DNA of 52,702 bases from Oscillospiraceae bacterium (lineage in GTDB: Bacteria; Bacillota; Clostridia; Oscillospirales; Oscillospiraceae), in assembly GCA_017506735.1 (NCBI GenBank), contig JAFVMW010000054.1, positions 1 to 52,702 of the forward strand. The letters run 5' to 3'. The notes beneath the pieces were generated by a model. The model saw nothing but the letters and a program-made list of their open reading frames with translations. It was not told the origin of the DNA and searched no databases. The translations under genes and the position numbers were made by a program. Of this stretch, positions 20,381-27,347 are shown one piece after another (the stretch's first letter is position 1; every line of letters begins with the position of its first letter).

Positions 20381-20409
20381 TTTATACCAAAGGTTGAAAA
20401 AGAATGCAA
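20381..20409 (-). promoter_or_regulatory. Promoter of the purine nucleoside phosphorylase gene
   Basis: Minus-strand -35 TTGCAT (20404-20409), 17 bp spacer and -10 TATAAA (20381-20386). Confidence 0.65.
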
Positions 20410-20425
20410 GAAATATTCTCCTGTC

Positions 20426-20457
20426 ACCCGGGGAAGGTTGAAACCGCCCGGGTTTTT
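20426..20457 (+). terminator. Terminator- or attenuator-like hairpin directly before the phage block
   Basis: ACCCGGG (20426-20432) pairs with CCCGGGT (20447-20453), with an inner GGTT/AACC stem, and is followed by TTTTG. It ends only 28 bp before the terminase small subunit start, so it would stop or regulate any transcript entering the block. Confidence 0.65.
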
Positions 20458-20484
20458 GCTTACCGGTGAAAGGAGGAGGAAGGC

Positions 20485-20814
20485 TTGGCAGGAAGGAACA
20501 AGCAGGAAACCGGGCTGAAAAGCCGCATCCGGCAGGGCAGAATCCGCCGGGAGGATGTGACCCGGCGGCTGGCGGAGCTGGCCTTCGGACAGCCCAATGA
20601 CTGTGTGCGGCTTGCCCTGGAGGAGGTGGAGGATCTGGAGGGTCTGGACTTAAGCCTGCTCAGCGAAATCAAGCGCAGCGAAAAGGGTATGGTGGAAATC
20701 AAGCTCATTGACCGGCTCCGGGCCCTGGAGCAGCTGGCACAGGCCGCCGGTGAGGATCGGGGACAGGTGGAGGAATTTCTGAAGGCCCTGGGTTCGGCAG
20801 GTGAGGGGTCGTGA
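20485..20814 (+). CDS. Phage terminase small subunit
   Basis: A 109-residue, highly charged helical protein, beginning at a TTG codon preceded by AAAGGAGGAGG. It overlaps the large terminase gene by 4 nt. The position directly before a clear terminase large subunit, the size and the helical pattern with a C-terminal coiled segment (KLIDRLRALEQLAQAAGED) support a small terminase, which would recognise phage DNA and start packaging. The N-terminal KSRIRQGRIRREDVTRRLAEL may be the DNA-binding part. Sequence alone does not reveal a classic HTH, so the call relies on context. Confidence 0.7.
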   Translation: MAGRNKQETGLKSRIRQGRIRREDVTRRLAELAFGQPNDCVRLALEEVEDLEGLDLSLLSEIKRSEKGMVEIKLIDRLRALEQLAQAAGEDRGQVEEFLKALGSAGEGS

Positions 20815-22067
20815 GCTACAGTGCCTTTTCGGAAAAGCAGCGCAGGGCCATGCTGTGGTGGATGCCGGGAAGCGGTGAGGCAGGGTATGAGGCCATTGTC
20901 TGCGACGGGGCGGTAAGGTCTGGAAAGACCCTGGCCATGGGGCTGGGATTTTTTCTGTGGGCCATGGTTTGCTTTGAGGGGAAGCGGTTTGCCCTGTGCG
21001 GCAAGACCATTGCCGCCCTCCGGCGGAATGTGCTGTCGGAGATCCTGCCCCGGATGGAGGGGCTGGGGGCGGTATGGAAGGAGAAGCGGACGGAAAACAA
21101 GGTCACCATGACCTTTGGGGGCCGGAGCAACGAATTTTACATCTTCGGGGGACGGGATGAGTCCTCGGCCTCCCTGATTCAGGGCATGACCCTGGCAGGG
21201 GCGCTGTTTGATGAGGCGGCGCTGATGCCGAAAAGCTTTGTGGAGCAGGCCTGCGCCCGATGCTCGGTGACGGGGAGCCGCCTGTGGTTCAACTGCAATC
21301 CGGCAGGGCCCACCCACTGGTTTTACAGGCAGTGGATTCTGGAGGCGGAGCAGCGGAAATGTCTGCACCTGCATTTTGTGATGGAGGACAACCCATCCCT
21401 GGATGAGGCCATCCGGCAGCGGTATCAAAGGCTGTACACCGGGGTGTTTTACCGGCGGTTTGTGCTGGGACAGTGGGCCCAGGCCGAGGGACGGGTTTAC
21501 GATTTCTTCGGGCCGGAGTATGTGAAGCCCGCGCCGGAAGGTGGGTACACTGGGTGGTATATCTCCTGCGATTACGGCACTGTGAATCCCACCAGCATGG
21601 GGCTGTGGGGACAGCATCAGGGGGTGTGGTATCGGGTGAAGGAATTTTACTTCGATTCCCGGCAGAAAATGCGGCAGATGACCGACGGGGAATATGTCCG
21701 TGCCCTGGCGGAGCTGGCAGGGGGACGGAGGATCAAAGCGGTGATCGTGGACCCGTCGGCGGCCAGCTTCATCCAGGCCCTGCGGAGGGAAGGCTGGACG
21801 GTGCGGCAGGCGGACAACGATGTGATTTCCGGCATCCGGGCCACGGCAGAGGCCCTGAAAACCGGGAGGATCGTGATCTGCGACGGCTGCGGTGACTGCC
21901 TCCGGGAGATGGAGGAGTATGTGTGGGATCTGAAGGACGGCACCCGGGATCGGGTGAAGAAGGAGCATGACCACGCCATGGACGATATGCGCTATTTCGT
22001 CGCCACGGTGCTGGGCCCCCGGCAGGGGGGCTTCGCTGTGGCAGGCGTCCGGCGGCAGAAAGGATGA
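20811..22067 (+). CDS. Phage terminase large subunit (PBSX/Terminase_3-like)
   Basis: The 418-residue packaging ATPase-nuclease begins at GTG, overlapping the previous stop. It has Walker A GAVRSGKT (33-40), Walker B GALFDEAAL with Asp134-Glu135, coupling motif FNCNPAGPTHWF, and a RNase H-like nuclease domain starting at YISCDYGTVNPTSMGL with further acidic residues in AVIVDPSAASF and HAMDDMRYF. It would drive DNA into the prohead and cut it. All core motifs look intact, so this is not an obviously decayed gene. It overlaps the portal gene by 4 nt. Confidence 0.93.
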   Translation: MSYSAFSEKQRRAMLWWMPGSGEAGYEAIVCDGAVRSGKTLAMGLGFFLWAMVCFEGKRFALCGKTIAALRRNVLSEILPRMEGLGAVWKEKRTENKVTMTFGGRSNEFYIFGGRDESSASLIQGMTLAGALFDEAALMPKSFVEQACARCSVTGSRLWFNCNPAGPTHWFYRQWILEAEQRKCLHLHFVMEDNPSLDEAIRQRYQRLYTGVFYRRFVLGQWAQAEGRVYDFFGPEYVKPAPEGGYTGWYISCDYGTVNPTSMGLWGQHQGVWYRVKEFYFDSRQKMRQMTDGEYVRALAELAGGRRIKAVIVDPSAASFIQALRREGWTVRQADNDVISGIRATAEALKTGRIVICDGCGDCLREMEEYVWDLKDGTRDRVKKEHDHAMDDMRYFVATVLGPRQGGFAVAGVRRQKG

Positions 22068-23212
22068 AGCGAAGGATGAAACGGAAAAACCAGGCCCTGC
22101 CGGTGGCGGCGAAATGCCAGATCCGCAGCGGCGAAACCCATCCCTTTGGGATGCTCCGGGGGTACATCCCCCTGGGAGGCGGAGAGGAACGGATCTACCG
22201 GCAGCTGAGGGAGGCGCTGCCTGTGCTGGATGCGGCCATCGGGAAGCTGATCCGGCTCTCCGGGGGCTTTGATGTGAGATGCCCCGGGAAGCAGGCGGAG
22301 GACGGCCTCCGGACCTTTTTGAAAACCGTGAACTGCGGCAGAGGCCAGAGGGGCATTGACAGCTTCCTTGCCGGATATCTGGACAGTCTGCTGACCTGCG
22401 GCAGGGCTGTGGGGGAGATGGTGGTGGCGGACCGGAGGCTCCGGGGGGTCTGCTGGGCGGATGTGACCCTTTTGCAGATCCGGCAGGGGGAGGACCCTCT
22501 GGATGTGGAGCTGTGCATGGCAGATGAACATGGTCAGATACGGCCCCTGCCCTGGCAGAATCTGCTGCTGTTTACCACGTTGAATCCGGAGCCGGAGCAT
22601 CCTTACGGGGTGAGTATGCTCCGGGGGATGCCCTTCCTGGCGGAGATTCTGATGAAAATCTACCACACCCTGGGGGTGAACTGGGAACGGGCCGGAAATG
22701 TGCGCTACAGCGTGGTATGCAGGCCCGGAAACGATGTGGACCCCATGACCGCCCAGGAACGGGGCAGCCAGATCGCCGCCGAGTGGGCCAGGGCCATGGA
22801 GGACGGGAAGAACGGCATGGTAAGGGACTTTGTGGCGGTGGGTGATGTGGAGATCAAGGTCATCGGCGGTGAGAGTCCCATTCTTGACTCCCAGGTGCCG
22901 GTGCGGCAGATTCTGGAACAGCTCATTGCCAAGACCGGGCTGCCTCCCTTCCTGCTGGGCTTCAGCTGGAGCACCACGGAACGGATGAGCGCCCAGCAGG
23001 CGGATCTGCTGACCAGCGAGCTGTGGGCCCTGCGCAGGACTGTGGAGCCTGCACTGGAGAAGATCTGCAGAACCTGGCTGGCGCTGGAGGGCTTTGACCC
23101 CAGGGTGGAGATCCTGTGGGATGACATCAGCCTGCAGGACATCACCGAGCAGGCCAAGGCGGAGTATTACAAGGCCCAGGCGGCGAAGTATTACAAGGAA
23201 GCGGAGGAATGA
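22064..23212 (+). CDS. Phage portal protein
   Basis: The 382-residue protein sits in the invariant portal position between large terminase and protease. It shows portal-like features: a long mixed alpha/beta body with QNLLLFTTLNPEPEHPYGVSML, a segment VRQILEQLIAKTGLPPFLLGF typical of SPP1/DUF-type portals, and a C-terminal helical region ending in AKAEYYKAQAAKYYKEAEE. Portals form the dodecameric ring through which DNA enters the head. It starts with ATGA overlapping the terminase stop and ends overlapping the next gene. It is somewhat shorter than many portals (450-500 residues). Confidence 0.85.
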   Translation: MKRRMKRKNQALPVAAKCQIRSGETHPFGMLRGYIPLGGGEERIYRQLREALPVLDAAIGKLIRLSGGFDVRCPGKQAEDGLRTFLKTVNCGRGQRGIDSFLAGYLDSLLTCGRAVGEMVVADRRLRGVCWADVTLLQIRQGEDPLDVELCMADEHGQIRPLPWQNLLLFTTLNPEPEHPYGVSMLRGMPFLAEILMKIYHTLGVNWERAGNVRYSVVCRPGNDVDPMTAQERGSQIAAEWARAMEDGKNGMVRDFVAVGDVEIKVIGGESPILDSQVPVRQILEQLIAKTGLPPFLLGFSWSTTERMSAQQADLLTSELWALRRTVEPALEKICRTWLALEGFDPRVEILWDDISLQDITEQAKAEYYKAQAAKYYKEAEE

Positions 23213-24108
23213 CAATGGAAGTAAAAAAGCAGACCCAGGCGCTGGGAGGCGGCGTTCCCACGGCGCAGCAGCTTGGGGCCATCAATGCCCAGGCGAAGGC
23301 AGAGCTGAAGGCGGAGGAGGTTTACGTCTTTTCCCTGCGGCTGTGCGACGATCAGGTGGATCGGGATCACGAGCGGTTTGACACGGAGGCTCTGCCGGAG
23401 CTTGCCCGGATGTTTGTGGGAAAGTCTGGCATTGTGGATCACCAGTGGTCAGCAAAGCAGCAGGTGGCCCGGATCTTTGAGGCCGGGGTGGTCACAGAGG
23501 CTGGGGTGAGCTACATCAAGGCCTGGGCCTACATCCGCCGGGGCGGCGCCGGGGACGAGTGGATCGCGGACATTGAGGCCGGAATCAAGAAGGAGGTTTC
23601 CGTGGGCTGTGCCATGGGCAGAAGCGTCTGCTCGGTCTGCGGACTGGAATACGGCACCTGCGGCCATCAGAAGGGCAATGTGTATGACGGACAGAGCTGT
23701 GTGGCGGTGCTGAAGGAGCCTGTGGATGCCTACGAGTTTTCCTTTGTGGCGGTGCCTGCCCAGGCCAATGCCGGAGTGCTGAAGGGCATGGGTACGGGGA
23801 AGGCGAGCCTGAAGGAGCTGGCAGACCGGTTCGGCGCCCAGGAGGAGTACCGGAATCTCTATAAGCAGGCGGCGCTGGGGCAGGAATATGCCGGGCTTCT
23901 GGCAGACCAGACCGTTCGGCTGTGTCTGGCCCTGGAGCTGGGGCTGGAGGAAAAACTCCTGCGGCAGATGACGGGCAAGCTGGGAACGGCGGAGCTGAAG
24001 GCGCTGTGCAGGGCGCTGTCTGAAAAGGCGGACCGGAAATTCCCTGCCCGGGTGCAGATTGCTGCGTCGGAGGAAGCAGGGGATTGGGACACTGGTTATC
24101 TGATCTGA
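23209..24108 (+). CDS. Prohead maturation protease with zinc-ribbon-like insert
   Basis: A 299-residue protein with the order of S78-like prohead proteases: DQVDRDHERFD near the N-terminus, a likely catalytic His78 in GIVDHQW followed by VARI, and Ser131 in KKEVSVGCAMG. Directly after comes a Cys/His cluster C141-x2-C144-x6-C151-G-H153...C164, which I have seen in similar proteases of other phages. The C-terminal third is helical and could act as the internal scaffold, cleaved during maturation. It overlaps the portal gene by 4 nt. The next gene is 46 bp away. Confidence 0.75.
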   Translation: MTMEVKKQTQALGGGVPTAQQLGAINAQAKAELKAEEVYVFSLRLCDDQVDRDHERFDTEALPELARMFVGKSGIVDHQWSAKQQVARIFEAGVVTEAGVSYIKAWAYIRRGGAGDEWIADIEAGIKKEVSVGCAMGRSVCSVCGLEYGTCGHQKGNVYDGQSCVAVLKEPVDAYEFSFVAVPAQANAGVLKGMGTGKASLKELADRFGAQEEYRNLYKQAALGQEYAGLLADQTVRLCLALELGLEEKLLRQMTGKLGTAELKALCRALSEKADRKFPARVQIAASEEAGDWDTGYLI

Positions 24109-24156
24109 GTTTCTCCGGGAAACCGGTGAACATATTTATTCATGGAGGTACGAATG

Positions 24157-24495
24157 ATGAAGGTAGCATTTGAAGAAATCGGCCGTGTGGCGGCGACCTT
24201 TGCCGCTGACGGGGTCAAGGCCGGGACGGTTTGCAAGATGGCCGGGAATGGCATGGTGGCTCCCTGCGCCGATGGGGAGGAATTTGTGGGTCTGGTGGAG
24301 CATGTCCGGAAGGGCTTCTGCGGTGTTCAGCTCCACGGCTTTGCCCAGGTGGCGTACACCGGCACCGCGCCCGGTCTGGGGTATGTGAATCTGGCGGCCA
24401 ATGGGGGCGGCGGCGTGAAGGTCAGCTCTGGCGGCCGGGGTCATCTGGTGGTCGCCGTGGATGAAAATGCCATGAAGGCTGTCATCGAACTGTAA
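24157..24495 (+). CDS. Probable head decoration or capsid-stabilising protein
   Basis: A 112-residue beta-rich protein (FEEIGRVAATFAADGVKAGTV, VAYTGTAPGLGYVNLAANG, GHLVVAVDENAM), located between protease and major capsid, exactly where decoration proteins such as lambda gpD or DUF2190-type proteins sit. The pattern of a short Gly-rich barrel fits that group, but no diagnostic motif exists. The start at 24157 has GGAGG 8 nt upstream; 24154 is the alternative. It ends 14 bp before the capsid gene. Confidence 0.6.
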   Translation: MKVAFEEIGRVAATFAADGVKAGTVCKMAGNGMVAPCADGEEFVGLVEHVRKGFCGVQLHGFAQVAYTGTAPGLGYVNLAANGGGGVKVSSGGRGHLVVAVDENAMKAVIEL

Positions 24496-24509
24496 GGAGG
24501 AATGGGAAA

Positions 24510-25535
24510 ATGGCATACGATAATCTGAGATTGGAAAAGGGCATGTACCGCCAGGAGGGTATGACCTTTACCCAGGTTCTGGAGAGCATGGACCCCAGCG
24601 AAAATTACCGGGGCACTGCCCTGGAGAACACCGACGCCTTCCAGCGTCAGCTTAAGCGCTTCGGCATCAAGGTGAAGGGCGCAGGCTCCTCCACTGTGGA
24701 GAAATTCTTCCGCACCATGGATTCCGCGGTGCTGTTCCCCGAGTACATCGCCCGGGCCGTCCGGCAGGGCATGGAGGAGAACGACATTCTGCCTGCCATT
24801 ACCGCCACCACCACCGTCATCGACGCCATGGACTATCGCTCCATCTACGCCGAGAGCGACGAGGATGGTTTCGGCATGAAGGCTGTGGCAGAGGGTGCCC
24901 AGATTCCTGCCACCCACATCAGAACCCGGGAGCATCTGATCAATCTGACCAAACGGGGCAGAATGCTGGTTTGTAGCTATGAGGCTGTCCGGTTCCAGAA
25001 GCTGGATCTGTTCAGCGTCATGCTGCGCCAGATCGGCAGCTACATCCAGAAGATGGTTTTGGCGGATGCCATCGATGTGCTGGTCAACGGCGACGGCAAC
25101 GGCAACGCTGCCCAGGTGTACCAGGTGGGGACTGATCCCATCAGCGGCCAGGCAGGTGCGCTGGGCTATGACCAGCTGGTGGAATTCTGGGGCCAGTTTG
25201 ATCCCTACACCATGAACGGTCTGGTGTGCAGCCCTGCCATGATGACCAAGCTTCTGAAGGTGCCTGAGCTGCAGAATCCTCTGACCGGTCTGAACTTCCA
25301 GGGCACCGGCGAAGTTGGTACTCCCCTGGGCGCCAAGCTCCACCGCACCGGCTGTGTGGCGGACGATCTGATCATTGGCCTGGACAGCCGCTATGCCCTG
25401 GAGCTGGTGCGGGCCGGGGATGTGCTGGTGGAGTATGACAAGCTCATTGACCGTCAGCTGGAGCGGGCTGCCATCACCGCTGTTTCCGGCTTTGGCAAAA
25501 TCTGTGACGGTGCGGTGAAGCTGCTGCAGGTATGA
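24510..25535 (+). CDS. Phage major capsid protein (HK97-fold type)
   Basis: The 341-residue protein is placed after the protease and decoration genes. It has a capsid-like pattern: an N-terminal arm with TFTQVLESMDPSENY, then an E-loop and P-domain helix area (LFSVMLRQIGSYIQKMVLADAIDVLVNG), then NGLVCSPAMMTKLLKVPEL and the closing strand YALELVRAGDVLVEYDKLI. Such capsids assemble the icosahedral shell and are matured by the protease. The ribosome-binding site AAGGAGG before 24510 is strong, and the codon choice is more biased than in its neighbours, as expected for a high-copy protein. It overlaps the next gene by 4 nt. Confidence 0.85.
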   Translation: MAYDNLRLEKGMYRQEGMTFTQVLESMDPSENYRGTALENTDAFQRQLKRFGIKVKGAGSSTVEKFFRTMDSAVLFPEYIARAVRQGMEENDILPAITATTTVIDAMDYRSIYAESDEDGFGMKAVAEGAQIPATHIRTREHLINLTKRGRMLVCSYEAVRFQKLDLFSVMLRQIGSYIQKMVLADAIDVLVNGDGNGNAAQVYQVGTDPISGQAGALGYDQLVEFWGQFDPYTMNGLVCSPAMMTKLLKVPELQNPLTGLNFQGTGEVGTPLGAKLHRTGCVADDLIIGLDSRYALELVRAGDVLVEYDKLIDRQLERAAITAVSGFGKICDGAVKLLQV

Positions 25536-25888
25536 TCCTGACGGAACGGATCTTCGCCCAGGCCCTGACCCTGGCCGGAGATCTGGACGCCCGGCAGACG
25601 GCGCTGCTGCGGGTGCTGTGCAGGGGAGCGGAACGCTCCCTGGCAGCCCAGCTCCGCAGGGGACTGACGGCGGAGGATTGTCTTGCGGACTTTACCTCTG
25701 CCGCCGGTCTGATGGCACTGGCGGCGCTGTCTGAAACCGGGGAAGAGGATTCTGTGGAGCGGTTTACCGCCGGGGATGTGACCATCCAGAAACGCTCGAA
25801 CAGCGCGGCGGCAAACTGCCTGCGCTATCAGGCCAGGGTTATGATGACGCCCTATCTCCGGGACAATTTCCTGTTTCAGGGGGTGTAA
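25532..25888 (+). CDS. Head-tail connector / head completion protein
   Basis: A 118-residue mostly helical protein immediately after the capsid gene (ATGA overlap). Size, position and helical content (AQALTLAGDLDARQTALLRVL, AERSLAAQLRRGLT) match adaptor proteins of the HK97 gp6 or SPP1 gp15 type, which dock under the portal ring. No diagnostic motif, so the assignment is from context. Confidence 0.6.
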   Translation: MILTERIFAQALTLAGDLDARQTALLRVLCRGAERSLAAQLRRGLTAEDCLADFTSAAGLMALAALSETGEEDSVERFTAGDVTIQKRSNSAAANCLRYQARVMMTPYLRDNFLFQGV

Positions 25889-25891
25889 GCC

Positions 25892-26230
25892 GTGAAGCGG
25901 ATGGTGGAGAAGATGATGGCAAGCCACGGCAGAACCATCACCCTGGAACAGGAAGGCGTGCGCAAACCGGTGAAGGCTTTTTTGCAGCCGGTGAACGCCA
26001 ATGTGGAGCGGATCTCCCTGCCGGCCATGGGGCCGCTGGGCAGAGAGTCCCGGGAGCGGTTTCTCTACATTGGTCCGGCAGAGCCTGGGCTGCGGCCGGA
26101 TGACCGGCTGGAGGCCCAGGGGAAGGGGTATCTGGTTCGCAGCGCGGAGCTGGTGTATGCCGGGGAACAGGCCCTGTACTGCTGGGCCATGTGCGTGAAG
26201 GAAGGCGGTGAGGGAGTCTGGAATGGCTGA
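25892..26230 (+). CDS. Phage head closure-like protein
   Basis: A 112-residue protein with a GTG start three bases after the previous stop. The beta-rich core (KAFLQPVNANVERISL, RERFLYIGPAEPGLRPDDRLEAQGKGYLVRSAEL) resembles small stopper/closure proteins, in which a barrel seals the head after packaging. The phrase DDRLEAQGKGYLVRSAE has the look of proteins that report instrument-like parameters in minor head/tail genes of PBSX-type phages. The call comes from gene order. Confidence 0.55.
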   Translation: MKRMVEKMMASHGRTITLEQEGVRKPVKAFLQPVNANVERISLPAMGPLGRESRERFLYIGPAEPGLRPDDRLEAQGKGYLVRSAELVYAGEQALYCWAMCVKEGGEGVWNG

Positions 26231-26235
26231 CGGAA

Positions 26236-26916
26236 GTGATACGGGTGCTGGAAAGCAGCGGAATCCCGGCCGGGGAAGCCTTTCCCGGCGCAGAGCTTTC
26301 CGGACTCCGGGAACCCAGAGCGCTGGTAAACGTACAACGGGCAGACCAGGGAACCGGCAGGGCGGAATTGTCCGTCCGGGTGATGAGTCCCCGGCGGCTG
26401 GGCCTTTGGGAATGCCAGAACACGGCGGTGAAGGCCATGCAGGCTCTGGCTGTGACGGGCATGGCCTGCCGGATGGAGCAGATGACCTTCGAGGAGGGCT
26501 GTGACTGCTTTTGCGTGAAGGTCATCGCCACTGTCTGCGGCCTTCTGGCTGGAAGCTGGCTGAAGGTGAAGGCAGATCAGACGGAGCTTTCCTGTGTTAC
26601 GGAATTTACCGCCGAGCAGGACCGGGGCCGGCGGCTCATCGGGGGCGTGAATCAGGAAACGCCGGTGGGGGTGACTGCCGGCACCGGCGGATGGAAGTTC
26701 CGGCTGGTTCGGATTGCGCCCAACTTTGGCTCGCTGGAACGGGAGCCGGAGGAACCCTTTCAGCTGACGGTGGCGGAGGGGAGCTGCGCAGCTCTGTTTT
26801 CCGGCTGTGTGCTGAACCGGGTGAAACAGACCGTGAACCGGGAGGAAGCGAGAGTGGAATGGGAGGGCTTTGCCCTGACCAGAGAGGAGCTGGAGGATGG
26901 AGAAGCTGAAGTTTAA
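26236..26916 (+). CDS. Phage head-tail joining / tail completion-like protein
   Basis: A 226-residue protein in the next slot of the module. No ATG is near: the frame opens after a stop at 26209. Possible starts are GTG 26236 or the CTG codons at 26218 and 26227, with GGTGAGGGAG (26207-26216) as ribosome-binding site, so the start is uncertain and could be 3-6 codons upstream. The N-terminal ESSGIPAGEAFPGAELSG is typical of tail-terminator-type proteins; the rest (about 90-226) contains several strands and four Cys and may be a second domain. It overlaps the next gene by 20 nt. Confidence 0.5.
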   Translation: MIRVLESSGIPAGEAFPGAELSGLREPRALVNVQRADQGTGRAELSVRVMSPRRLGLWECQNTAVKAMQALAVTGMACRMEQMTFEEGCDCFCVKVIATVCGLLAGSWLKVKADQTELSCVTEFTAEQDRGRRLIGGVNQETPVGVTAGTGGWKFRLVRIAPNFGSLEREPEEPFQLTVAEGSCAALFSGCVLNRVKQTVNREEARVEWEGFALTREELEDGEAEV

Positions 26917-27298
26917 GGGCTGGAGCTGGCCGGAAAACCCGGAGACCTTTCTGATGGAGGCAGTCCGGGAGCCGGAATACAGCAAGGCAGAGGATGGGAC
27001 TGTGACCTATGACGGGCTGGGCGCCCTTTGCCGGACGATCACCGGCAAGGGAATCTTCCAGGGGCCCTCGGCGGCGGCCAGCTTCCGGACGCTGCTGAGC
27101 TTTCTGGAGTCCGGGGAGGCAGGGCCGCTGATCCATCCGGTGTGGGGAACCATCAACGCCTGTCTGACGGAGCTGAAGATGGAGGAGGGCAGCGGTGAAC
27201 ACTGCATCACCTACGCCTACGCCTTCCGGGAGGTGGACGAAAAGGGTGGAATCCCTGCCCTGTCCCGGCCCGGGAACTGGGTGATCTATACCTACTAA
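26897..27298 (+). CDS. Phage tail/baseplate-associated protein similar to the Mu DNA-circularisation N-terminal domain
   Basis: A 133-residue protein beginning MEKLKFKGWSWPENPE. The segment GIFQGPSAAASFRTLLSFLESGEAG followed by PLIHPVWGTINACLTEL and the closing FREV recall the DNA_circ_N domain (N-terminal part of Mu gpN and related baseplate proteins), where a short conserved HP-W-G motif occurs. Such proteins are normally encoded after the tape-measure gene and are much longer. Here the protein stands alone as the last gene of the block, which suggests that the tail genes between were lost or never present. A strong terminator follows at 27320-27347. Confidence 0.55.
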   Translation: MEKLKFKGWSWPENPETFLMEAVREPEYSKAEDGTVTYDGLGALCRTITGKGIFQGPSAAASFRTLLSFLESGEAGPLIHPVWGTINACLTELKMEEGSGEHCITYAYAFREVDEKGGIPALSRPGNWVIYTY

Positions 27299-27319: not shown

Positions 27320-27347
27320 GCGCCCGTTTCCAGGTGGAAACGGGCGC
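27320..27347. terminator. Bidirectional terminator between the phage block and glgP
   Basis: Perfect 11 bp stem GCGCCCGTTTC/GAAACGGGCGC (loop CAGGTG). It is flanked by AAAAAG on the left (T-tract on the minus strand) and AATTTG on the right. Confidence 0.8.

What the first reader, a model, noticed from the sequence alone, without database searches (positions are those of the whole stretch)
20485..27298. Tail-less phage head and packaging module, intact and host-like
Ten overlapping genes encode small and large terminase, portal, protease, decoration, capsid and connectors with intact motifs. There is no integrase, repressor, tape measure, tail tube, baseplate set or lysis gene, and the block is flanked by purine salvage and glycogen genes with terminators on both sides. 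Codon use and GC look like the host. It may be a prophage remnant, a capsid-forming satellite, or a domesticated particle similar to a gene transfer agent.
Basis: partly seen in the sequence, partly recalled or inferred. Interest (0 to 1): 0.72.

Follow-up and report, generated by a model that had tools for sequence, protein, structure and literature searches.

The report
Tail-shedding domesticated phage head module
A gut bacterium carries, as part of its normal chromosome, a set of virus head-and-DNA-packing genes that its relatives appear to have inherited from parent to daughter over a long time while more than once losing the virus tail, which suggests the bacteria keep these shells for their own use, perhaps to move pieces of their own genome.

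Summary
The block is real and intact: terminases, portal, probable protease, decoration, capsid, two connectors, a terminator-plus-tube protein (g9) and a shortened baseplate-type protein (g10). It does not look like a decaying prophage. One stop-free capsid gene per genome occurs in 50 of 101 sampled genomes of the window's genus (Candidatus Faecousia group) and 107 of 300 of its family. The terminase/portal/capsid tree follows the RpoB tree (15 of 26 splits shared; relabelled trees at most 2). In syntenic pairs, head-gene dN/dS equals that of flanking chromosomal genes (both medians 0.085). Most family relatives outside the genus carry a fuller, roughly 13 kb cluster with sheath, tube, hub and Baseplate_J; the window's genus lacks sheath and baseplate, and terminator and tube are one protein. 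Sheath loss also occurred in three other genera that still hold sheath-bearing members. The small terminase has no room for the DNA-binding N-terminus that several relatives keep, the proposed mark of gene transfer agents (GTAs). Best reading: a vertically inherited, GTA-like particle of Oscillospirales reduced to a head with a stub neck. A GTA was reported in Faecalibacterium in January 2026; homology could not be tested. Particles, packaged DNA and delivery were not tested.

The parts
20485..20814 (+). TerS, small terminase, 109 aa, TTG start behind AGGAGG; lacks the N-terminal DNA-binding part of Terminase_2
   Evidence: Pfam PF03592 matched only at profile 54-128/141; open frame from the previous stop holds 114 codons at most; five relatives match from profile position 1-6; start region
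20811..22067 (+). TerL, large terminase, 418 aa, PBSX/D6E type
   Evidence: TIGR01547 168.9 bits; 49.6% identical to D6E TerL 5OE8; R36, E135, R150, D254, D314, D391 invariant in the 36 aligned sequences
22064..23212 (+). portal protein, 382 aa
   Evidence: phrog_30703 E 7.9e-153; 120 of 186 candidate stretches of genome contigs encode a relative
23209..24108 (+). probable prohead protease, 299 aa, with a conserved Cys/His cluster
   Evidence: phrog_16951 E 2e-94 (unknown function); H78, S131, C141, C144, C151, H153 invariant in the 39 aligned sequences
24142..24495 (+). decoration-type virion protein, 117 aa; often absent in the genus
   Evidence: phrog_4588 E 1e-26; called in 12 of 49 genus loci
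24510..25535 (+). major capsid protein, 341 aa
   Evidence: Phage_capsid_4 E 3e-15, phrog_3922 E 9e-103
25532..25888 (+). g7, probable head-tail adaptor, 118 aa
   Evidence: position; called in 49 of 49 genus loci; no significant family match; function inferred
25892..26230 (+). g8, probable neck valve/stopper, 112 aa
   Evidence: called in 48 of 49 genus loci; Minor_capsid_1 only at E 0.33; function inferred
26236..26916 (+). g9, tail terminator (about 1-106) plus tail-tube fold (about 106-222), 226 aa
26897..27298 (+). g10, DNA_circ_N baseplate-type protein, 133 aa, without the C-terminal LysM of a full-length relative
   Evidence: PF07157 E 4e-6, phrog_184 baseplate hub E 3e-8; L057 relative (196 aa) has LysM at 152-195; called in 22 of 49 genus loci
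27320..27347 (.). bidirectional intrinsic terminator between the block and the convergent glycogen phosphorylase gene
   Evidence: 12-pair stem, listed on both strands

Best explanation
A domesticated, vertically inherited gene-transfer-agent-like element of Oscillospirales, in a tail-reduced form. Supported by comparison: a cluster of about 13 kb (packaging, head, sheath, tube, short tail-interior genes, baseplate) follows the host lineage; in the window's genus the sheath, the tail-interior genes and the baseplate set are absent, tail terminator and tube form one protein, and TerS has no room for a sequence-specific DNA-binding part. Inferred mechanism: when expressed, TerS and TerL load host DNA without a preferred start site into a capsid built by the capsid protein, protease and portal; g7 and g8 close the neck; g9 forms a two-layer ring (terminator plus one tube layer), giving a head with a stub instead of a contractile tail. 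Release and any receptor binding would need unlinked genes (holin, endolysin and BppU-type fibre cassettes exist in some congeners, but the link is not shown). Delivery to other cells is inferred only by analogy with known GTAs.
For: Single copy without stops: 50 of 101 genus genomes; 107 of 300 family genomes in 49 of 106 genera (G202 shows two pieces, and a few matches are partial, e.g. G180 and G215); 43 of 295 in the order sample; in the class sample of 291, 7 matches, 2 of them outside the order. Co-inheritance with RpoB: Mantel r 0.86 over 29 genomes and 0.76 within 13 of the genus, 0 of 2000 permutations each; 15 of 26 splits shared, relabelled mean 0.22, maximum 2 in 1000 relabellings. 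Selection: TerL/portal/protease/capsid dN/dS median 0.085 (83 values) versus 0.085 for flanking genes (98 values), from 22 non-independent locus pairs. TerS truncation, the feature proposed for GTA-type TerS (PMC6854486, passages). Tail loss: of 107 capsid-bearing family genomes 95 have a sheath match and 12 do not; reduced maps in g52, g13 and g102, genera that also hold sheath-bearing genomes. Terminator-tube protein. GTA-like packaging reported in Oscillospiraceae and Ruminococcaceae, with an operon described for Faecalibacterium (PMC12946183: abstract, section 9 and passages).
Against: No particle, packaged DNA or transfer is shown. Half of the genus sample lacks the block (51 of 101; 13 of 28 of the more complete genomes), so it is dispensable. 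Rear genes are less constrained: over all unsaturated genus pairs g9 has median dN/dS 0.81 and g7 0.51 (divergent alignments), against 0.07-0.30 for g9 in syntenic pairs. g9 is only 103-130 aa in 6 of 49 loci and g10 is not called in 27 of 49 (some loci end at contig edges). The block's codon use deviates more than any host segment of the window. The short TerS is not special to tail-less forms: tailed family members (e.g. L262) and some loci of other families (L239, L249) are short too, and g52, tail-reduced, keeps the longer form. No linked lysis gene; holin co-occurrence in the genus is weak and confounded by prophages (strong hits 9 of 13 in capsid-bearing genomes, p 0.15; all hits 15 of 21, p 0.03). 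Two tree conflicts with support of 95 or more on both sides. g7 and g8 functions rest on position.
Confidence: 0.73

Rival explanations
1. A prophage remnant: the head end of a contractile-tailed prophage left after deletion, drifting towards loss.
For: Half of the genus sample lacks it; sheath and baseplate were lost more than once; rear genes are less constrained; one of 49 genus loci has an apparently split portal (L227).
Against: No stops in the capsid matches; head-gene dN/dS equals that of chromosomal neighbours in 22 locus pairs; host-like phylogeny; TerL catalytic residues invariant in 36 aligned sequences.
Confidence: 0.1
2. A head-encoding satellite (capsid-forming island) that borrows tails from a helper phage. 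The same genome does carry a separate tailed prophage.
For: Head genes without a tail; a prophage with its own terminase, tape-measure-like, lysis and recombinase genes sits beside rpoB in the same genome.
Against: No integrase or regulator seen in the block or the scanned flanks; inherited with the host; same flanks as close relatives; no room in TerS for the part that would select its own DNA.
Confidence: 0.06
3. A domesticated capsid kept for something other than gene transfer, for example DNA removal, decoy or cargo shells; the repeated tail loss would then reflect selection against injection.
For: Repeated loss of sheath and baseplate while packaging genes stay constrained in the genus; no tail-fibre gene linked.
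Against: TerL/portal conservation implies DNA packaging; the Faecalibacterium GTA-like particles also showed no identifiable tails yet held DNA of about 9 kb (PMC12946183).
Confidence: 0.11

Closest known systems
FpGTA of Faecalibacterium (PMC12946183; abstract, section 9 and passages seen)
   Same: Recalled to be of the same order; [quoted passage not shown] no identifiable tail; further structural and lysis genes unlinked.
   Different: A sheath-bearing form, the terminator-tube protein and host-tree congruence do not appear in the parts of that paper that I saw.
RcGTA of Rhodobacter capsulatus
   Different: Independent origin and a non-contractile tail (recalled); the window genus has no tail beyond the stub.
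Geobacillus phage D6E large terminase
   Same: TerL 49.6% identical over 399 residues; that 5OE8 is the D6E protein is recalled and fits the paper found (PMC5727402, passages).
   Different: D6E is a phage; only TerL was compared.
phiCD508 tail terminator gp53
   Different: In phiCD508 a sheath follows (PMC11948020, passages); no sequence match of the g9 profile to any solved chain.
PBSX-like defective prophages
   Same: TerL belongs to the NCBI PBSX-family model.
   Different: PBSX keeps a full tail and lysis genes (recalled); none linked here.

Membership tests
Gene transfer agent (GTA) | encoded by the host and inherited with it | tested here: met
   tree congruence with RpoB over 29 genomes, two supported conflicts
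Gene transfer agent (GTA) | no own replication, integration or repressor genes | tested here: met
   ten block genes and 7 scanned flanking genes; the rest of the window was not annotated gene by gene
Gene transfer agent (GTA) | TerS without the specific DNA-binding domain | tested here: met
   criterion from PMC6854486 passages
Gene transfer agent (GTA) | structural genes under purifying selection | tested here: met
   for head genes; rear genes weaker
Gene transfer agent (GTA) | packages random host DNA | not testable with these tools
   needs particle DNA
Gene transfer agent (GTA) | delivers DNA to recipient cells | not testable with these tools
   needs a transfer assay
Gene transfer agent (GTA) | lysis genes for release, linked or unlinked | tested here: inconclusive
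   holin and CHAP genes beside some tailed relatives; unlinked holins in the genus not clearly associated
FpGTA | homologous structural genes | not testable with these tools
   no named Faecalibacterium genome or FpGTA sequence was held; gene order agrees with the text
Capsid-forming phage-inducible island (features recalled) | integrase and island regulators | tested here: not met
   none in the block or the 7 scanned flanking genes
Capsid-forming phage-inducible island (features recalled) | head genes encoded, tail genes not | tested here: met
   only a terminator-tube stub and g10 remain
Temperate tailed phage | complete tail, lysis and lysogeny genes | tested here: not met
PBSX-family terminase | score above the NCBI model cut-off | tested here: met
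   168.9 bits, cut-off 105.05

The most novel reading that the evidence does not exclude
An ancient, order-wide GTA lineage in gut Oscillospirales that descends with its hosts and has repeatedly and independently discarded its contractile tail, ending in Faecousia as DNA-packaging capsids with a one-ring stub that the host keeps under housekeeping-strength selection. Delivery would no longer use sheath contraction, so the particle either borrows an adhesion and entry route encoded elsewhere or serves a purpose other than injection. It could also be the unidentified agent behind the GTA-like packaging reported in Oscillospiraceae.
Probability: 0.42. Interest if true: 0.87.

Novelty: new variant of a known kind. 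Interest (0 to 1): 0.74.

Why it matters
Studied GTAs are few and predominantly in Alphaproteobacteria (PMC12946183, passages). Here is a GTA-like family in gut bacteria with a readable series of forms: full contractile cluster, interrupted sheath, neighbouring terminator and tube, joined terminator-tube, head with a stub. It offers a natural experiment on which phage parts a host keeps, a candidate for packaging activity seen in gut Oscillospiraceae without a named operon, and a caution that IMG/VR and GenBank phage collections list such clusters as viral.

Tried and rejected
Prophage remnant, satellite and ordinary prophage were tested and disfavoured (see rivals). An empty site was sought with PNP and glycogen phosphorylase in 101 genus genomes (matches within the E-value limits set: PNP in 23, phosphorylase in 88). 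Both genes flank the block in the window and G042; in G025 only the phosphorylase side and in G044 only the APRT side is visible. No other genome showed the two genes as neighbours on one contig, so no empty site was seen, and insertion versus loss at this locus stays open.

Unlinked sheath, Baseplate_J and hub in the own genome: none; the hub search found nothing in 101 genomes and had no positive control in that call. The Baseplate_J matches in 6 of 101 congeners were looked at only as short gene maps. Unlinked holin: weak association. A cassette on an own-genome contig (fibre, holin, CHAP-SLH lysin; L312) is byte-identical to a contig of another species' genome (G030), so its assignment is unsafe and it is only a lead.

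The first tree used wrong reading frames for some RpoB loci and was discarded; one search replaces it. Of 30 genomes, G026 was dropped for a short RpoB fragment. dN/dS kept reciprocal best pairs of at least 90 aa, 50% identity and dS 0.05-1.5; 22 of 27 locus pairs in 7 chosen syntenic groups gave values. All-pair dN/dS is higher, most of all for g9. Gene maps come from a gene caller of my own; starts and small genes may be wrong. Profile searches of solved structures with the capsid, protease, tube and g9 alignments found nothing. Foldseek searches 'pdb' and 'viral' could not be run. Ten paper searches listed one paper on GTAs in these bacterial families, PMC12946183; several returned only the top of long lists, and subscription papers and preprints are not held, so absence from print is not claimed. 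PMC11841831 was searched for six terms with no occurrence. A search for the source of the MT835 records found none.

Full report
OBSERVATION. The window holds ten tightly packed + strand genes at 20485-27298. Pfam, PHROGs and NCBIfam identify TerS, TerL, portal, a virion protein, the capsid protein and, in g10, a DNA_circ_N baseplate-type domain. The protease reading rests on conserved residues. The flanks are chromosomal: APRT, PNP, glycogen phosphorylase, MalQ. The held genome (2.31 Mb, 117 contigs, 81% complete) has one portal match and no sheath, Baseplate_J or hub match. A strong terminator separates the block from glycogen phosphorylase. GC3 is host-like, but synonymous codon use deviates more than that of any host segment of the window.

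RELATIVES. A scan of genome contigs with the portal found 120 relatives among 186 candidate stretches (best 80 kept); titles include Oscillospiraceae, Faecousia, Flavonifractor, Oscillibacter, Evtepia and unclassified Clostridia or Bacillota. In viral contigs, 160 of 167 candidate stretches encode a relative of the capsid protein (best 80 kept), several being whole records of 13-14 kb. Gene maps (my own gene caller) fall into two main kinds. The fuller kind continues after g8 with a terminator, a sheath of about 350 aa, a tube, a chaperone-position gene, a short gene, g10 with LysM, a hub, two small wedge- or spike-position genes, Baseplate_J and a tail protein; in L057 and L123 the sheath, LysM, DNA_circ_N, hub and Baseplate_J matches are clear and the rest weaker. 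The reduced kind, found in the window's genus, ends with g9 or g10. Identical sequence pieces (L014 and L187, 67 of 67; L015 and L200, 88 of 105) tie the genus to contigs titled Candidatus Faecousia.

DISTRIBUTION. The capsid profile matches 50 of 101 sampled genomes of the genus, one match each, no stops (15 of 28 of the more complete ones). In the family it matches 107 of 300 genomes in 49 of 106 genera, one match each except G202 with two pieces. In the order sample it matches 43 of 295. In the class sample of 291 it matches 7: the window genome, 4 of the same order and 2 others, one of them partial. Presence is patchy, so the element has been lost often or is gained rarely.

VERTICAL DESCENT. 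RpoB and the joined TerL-portal-capsid alignment of 29 genomes give similar trees: distance correlation 0.86 overall and 0.76 among 13 members of the genus, 0 of 2000 permutations reaching either; 15 of 26 splits are shared, against a mean of 0.22 and at most 2 for 1000 relabelled trees. Two conflicts have support of at least 95 on both sides: the grouping among G000, G042 and G044, and G267 with G393 or with G317. Shared deep splits set apart the window genus, g52, the other family members, and the six genomes of two other families. The window shares both flanks with G042, the phosphorylase side with G025 and the APRT side with G044. Across the genus the surroundings fall into several groups, so the locus is not fixed.

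SELECTION. In 22 locus pairs from syntenic groups (not independent of each other) the four head genes have a median dN/dS of 0.085 (83 values), the same as flanking genes (0.085, 98 values); g9 lies at 0.07-0.30 and g10 at 0.05-0.34 in those pairs. Over all unsaturated genus pairs the medians are higher: TerL 0.21, portal 0.21, protease 0.26, capsid 0.16, g10 0.24, TerS 0.38, g8 0.46, decoration 0.48, g7 0.51, g9 0.81. TerL is 49.6% identical to D6E TerL. The residues matching its tested R44, E143 and R158 (paper passages; mapping by a constant offset, inferred) are R36, E135 and R150 and are invariant in the 36 aligned sequences, as are D254, D314 and D391, read as nuclease aspartates from recalled knowledge.

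TerS. The window TerS matches Terminase_2 only at profile 54-128, and its open frame from the previous stop holds 114 codons at most, so the N-terminal part cannot be there. Of ten other TerS scanned, five match from position 1-6 (L163, L237, L246, and L251 and L254 of g52), L232 from 46, and four from 53-62 (L002, L022, L041, L262). The short form is therefore shared with tailed family members, while the tail-reduced g52 keeps the long form; some loci of other families (L239, L249) have little or no room for it either. In the genus 28 of 42 TerS frames are under 150 codons even when counted from the previous stop; the other 14 were not scanned upstream of the called start. [quoted passage not shown] also a PMC7947584 passage).

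MECHANISM. Supported: conserved, selected packaging and head genes without a contractile tail, following host descent. Inferred: sequence-independent loading of host DNA, a stub neck, release by unlinked lysis genes. Some tailed relatives carry CHAP endolysin and holin genes beside the cluster. In the genus, isolated fibre/holin or lysin/holin cassettes exist (L303-L305, L307) but holins co-occur only weakly with the capsid gene. Not shown: particles, DNA content, transfer.

KNOWN SYSTEMS. [quoted passage not shown] The same paper reports GTA-like packaging in Oscillospiraceae (Onthomonas, 3 of 25 events) and, among the genomes it searched for an operon, names a strong candidate only in Faecalibacterium. 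Homology between FpGTA and this family could not be tested.

VERDICT. A GTA-like domesticated particle is the best explanation (0.73). It is a new variant of a known kind: descent with the order's hosts, repeated sheath loss and a terminator-tube protein are the new points.

Noticed in passing
L311, L315, L316 (own genome contig C68, beside rpoB): A separate siphovirus-type prophage with its own terminase (PBSX-family model below its cut-off), tape-measure-like and lysis genes and a tyrosine recombinase; different layout from the block.
   Followed up: partly
L312:1537-4594 and L320: Small cassette: BppU_N/collagen fibre, unknown 307 aa, holin, CHAP-SLH lysin, on a 4.7 kb contig that is identical in two different species' genomes.
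   Followed up: partly
L303, L304, L305: Fibre gene (BppU_N in L303) and holin alone between housekeeping genes at the same place in three congeners; looks like an isolated cassette.
   Followed up: partly
L307:6987-8028: Stand-alone holin plus peptidoglycan-binding M15 peptidase pair with no other obvious phage gene around it.
   Followed up: no
L323 (G350): Mirror-image reduction: terminases, sheath, tube and baseplate genes present, but portal, protease and capsid not called between TerL and sheath, as if heading towards a tail-only particle.
   Followed up: no
L232-L235 (family f26): Compact homologous blocks (TerS, TerL, portal, protease, capsid, connector-position genes, hub-like gene, no sheath), two of them with the same neighbours; possible relatives of FpGTA but unnamed.
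   Followed up: partly
window 20400-20484: By eye, a hairpin followed by a T run directly before the TerS ribosome site on the + strand; could act as an attenuator (leader folding z -1.97).
   Followed up: no
L162, L163 (MT835769, MT835508): GenBank 'Bacteriophage sp.' records from human faeces carry this element together with what may be bacterial flanking DNA; possibly host chromosome rather than phage.
   Followed up: no
L123:13083-13699, L060, L120: Two short ORFs of one family in the tail-chaperone position between tube and g10, a single ORF in others; resembles the frameshifted tail chaperones of phages (recalled).
   Followed up: no
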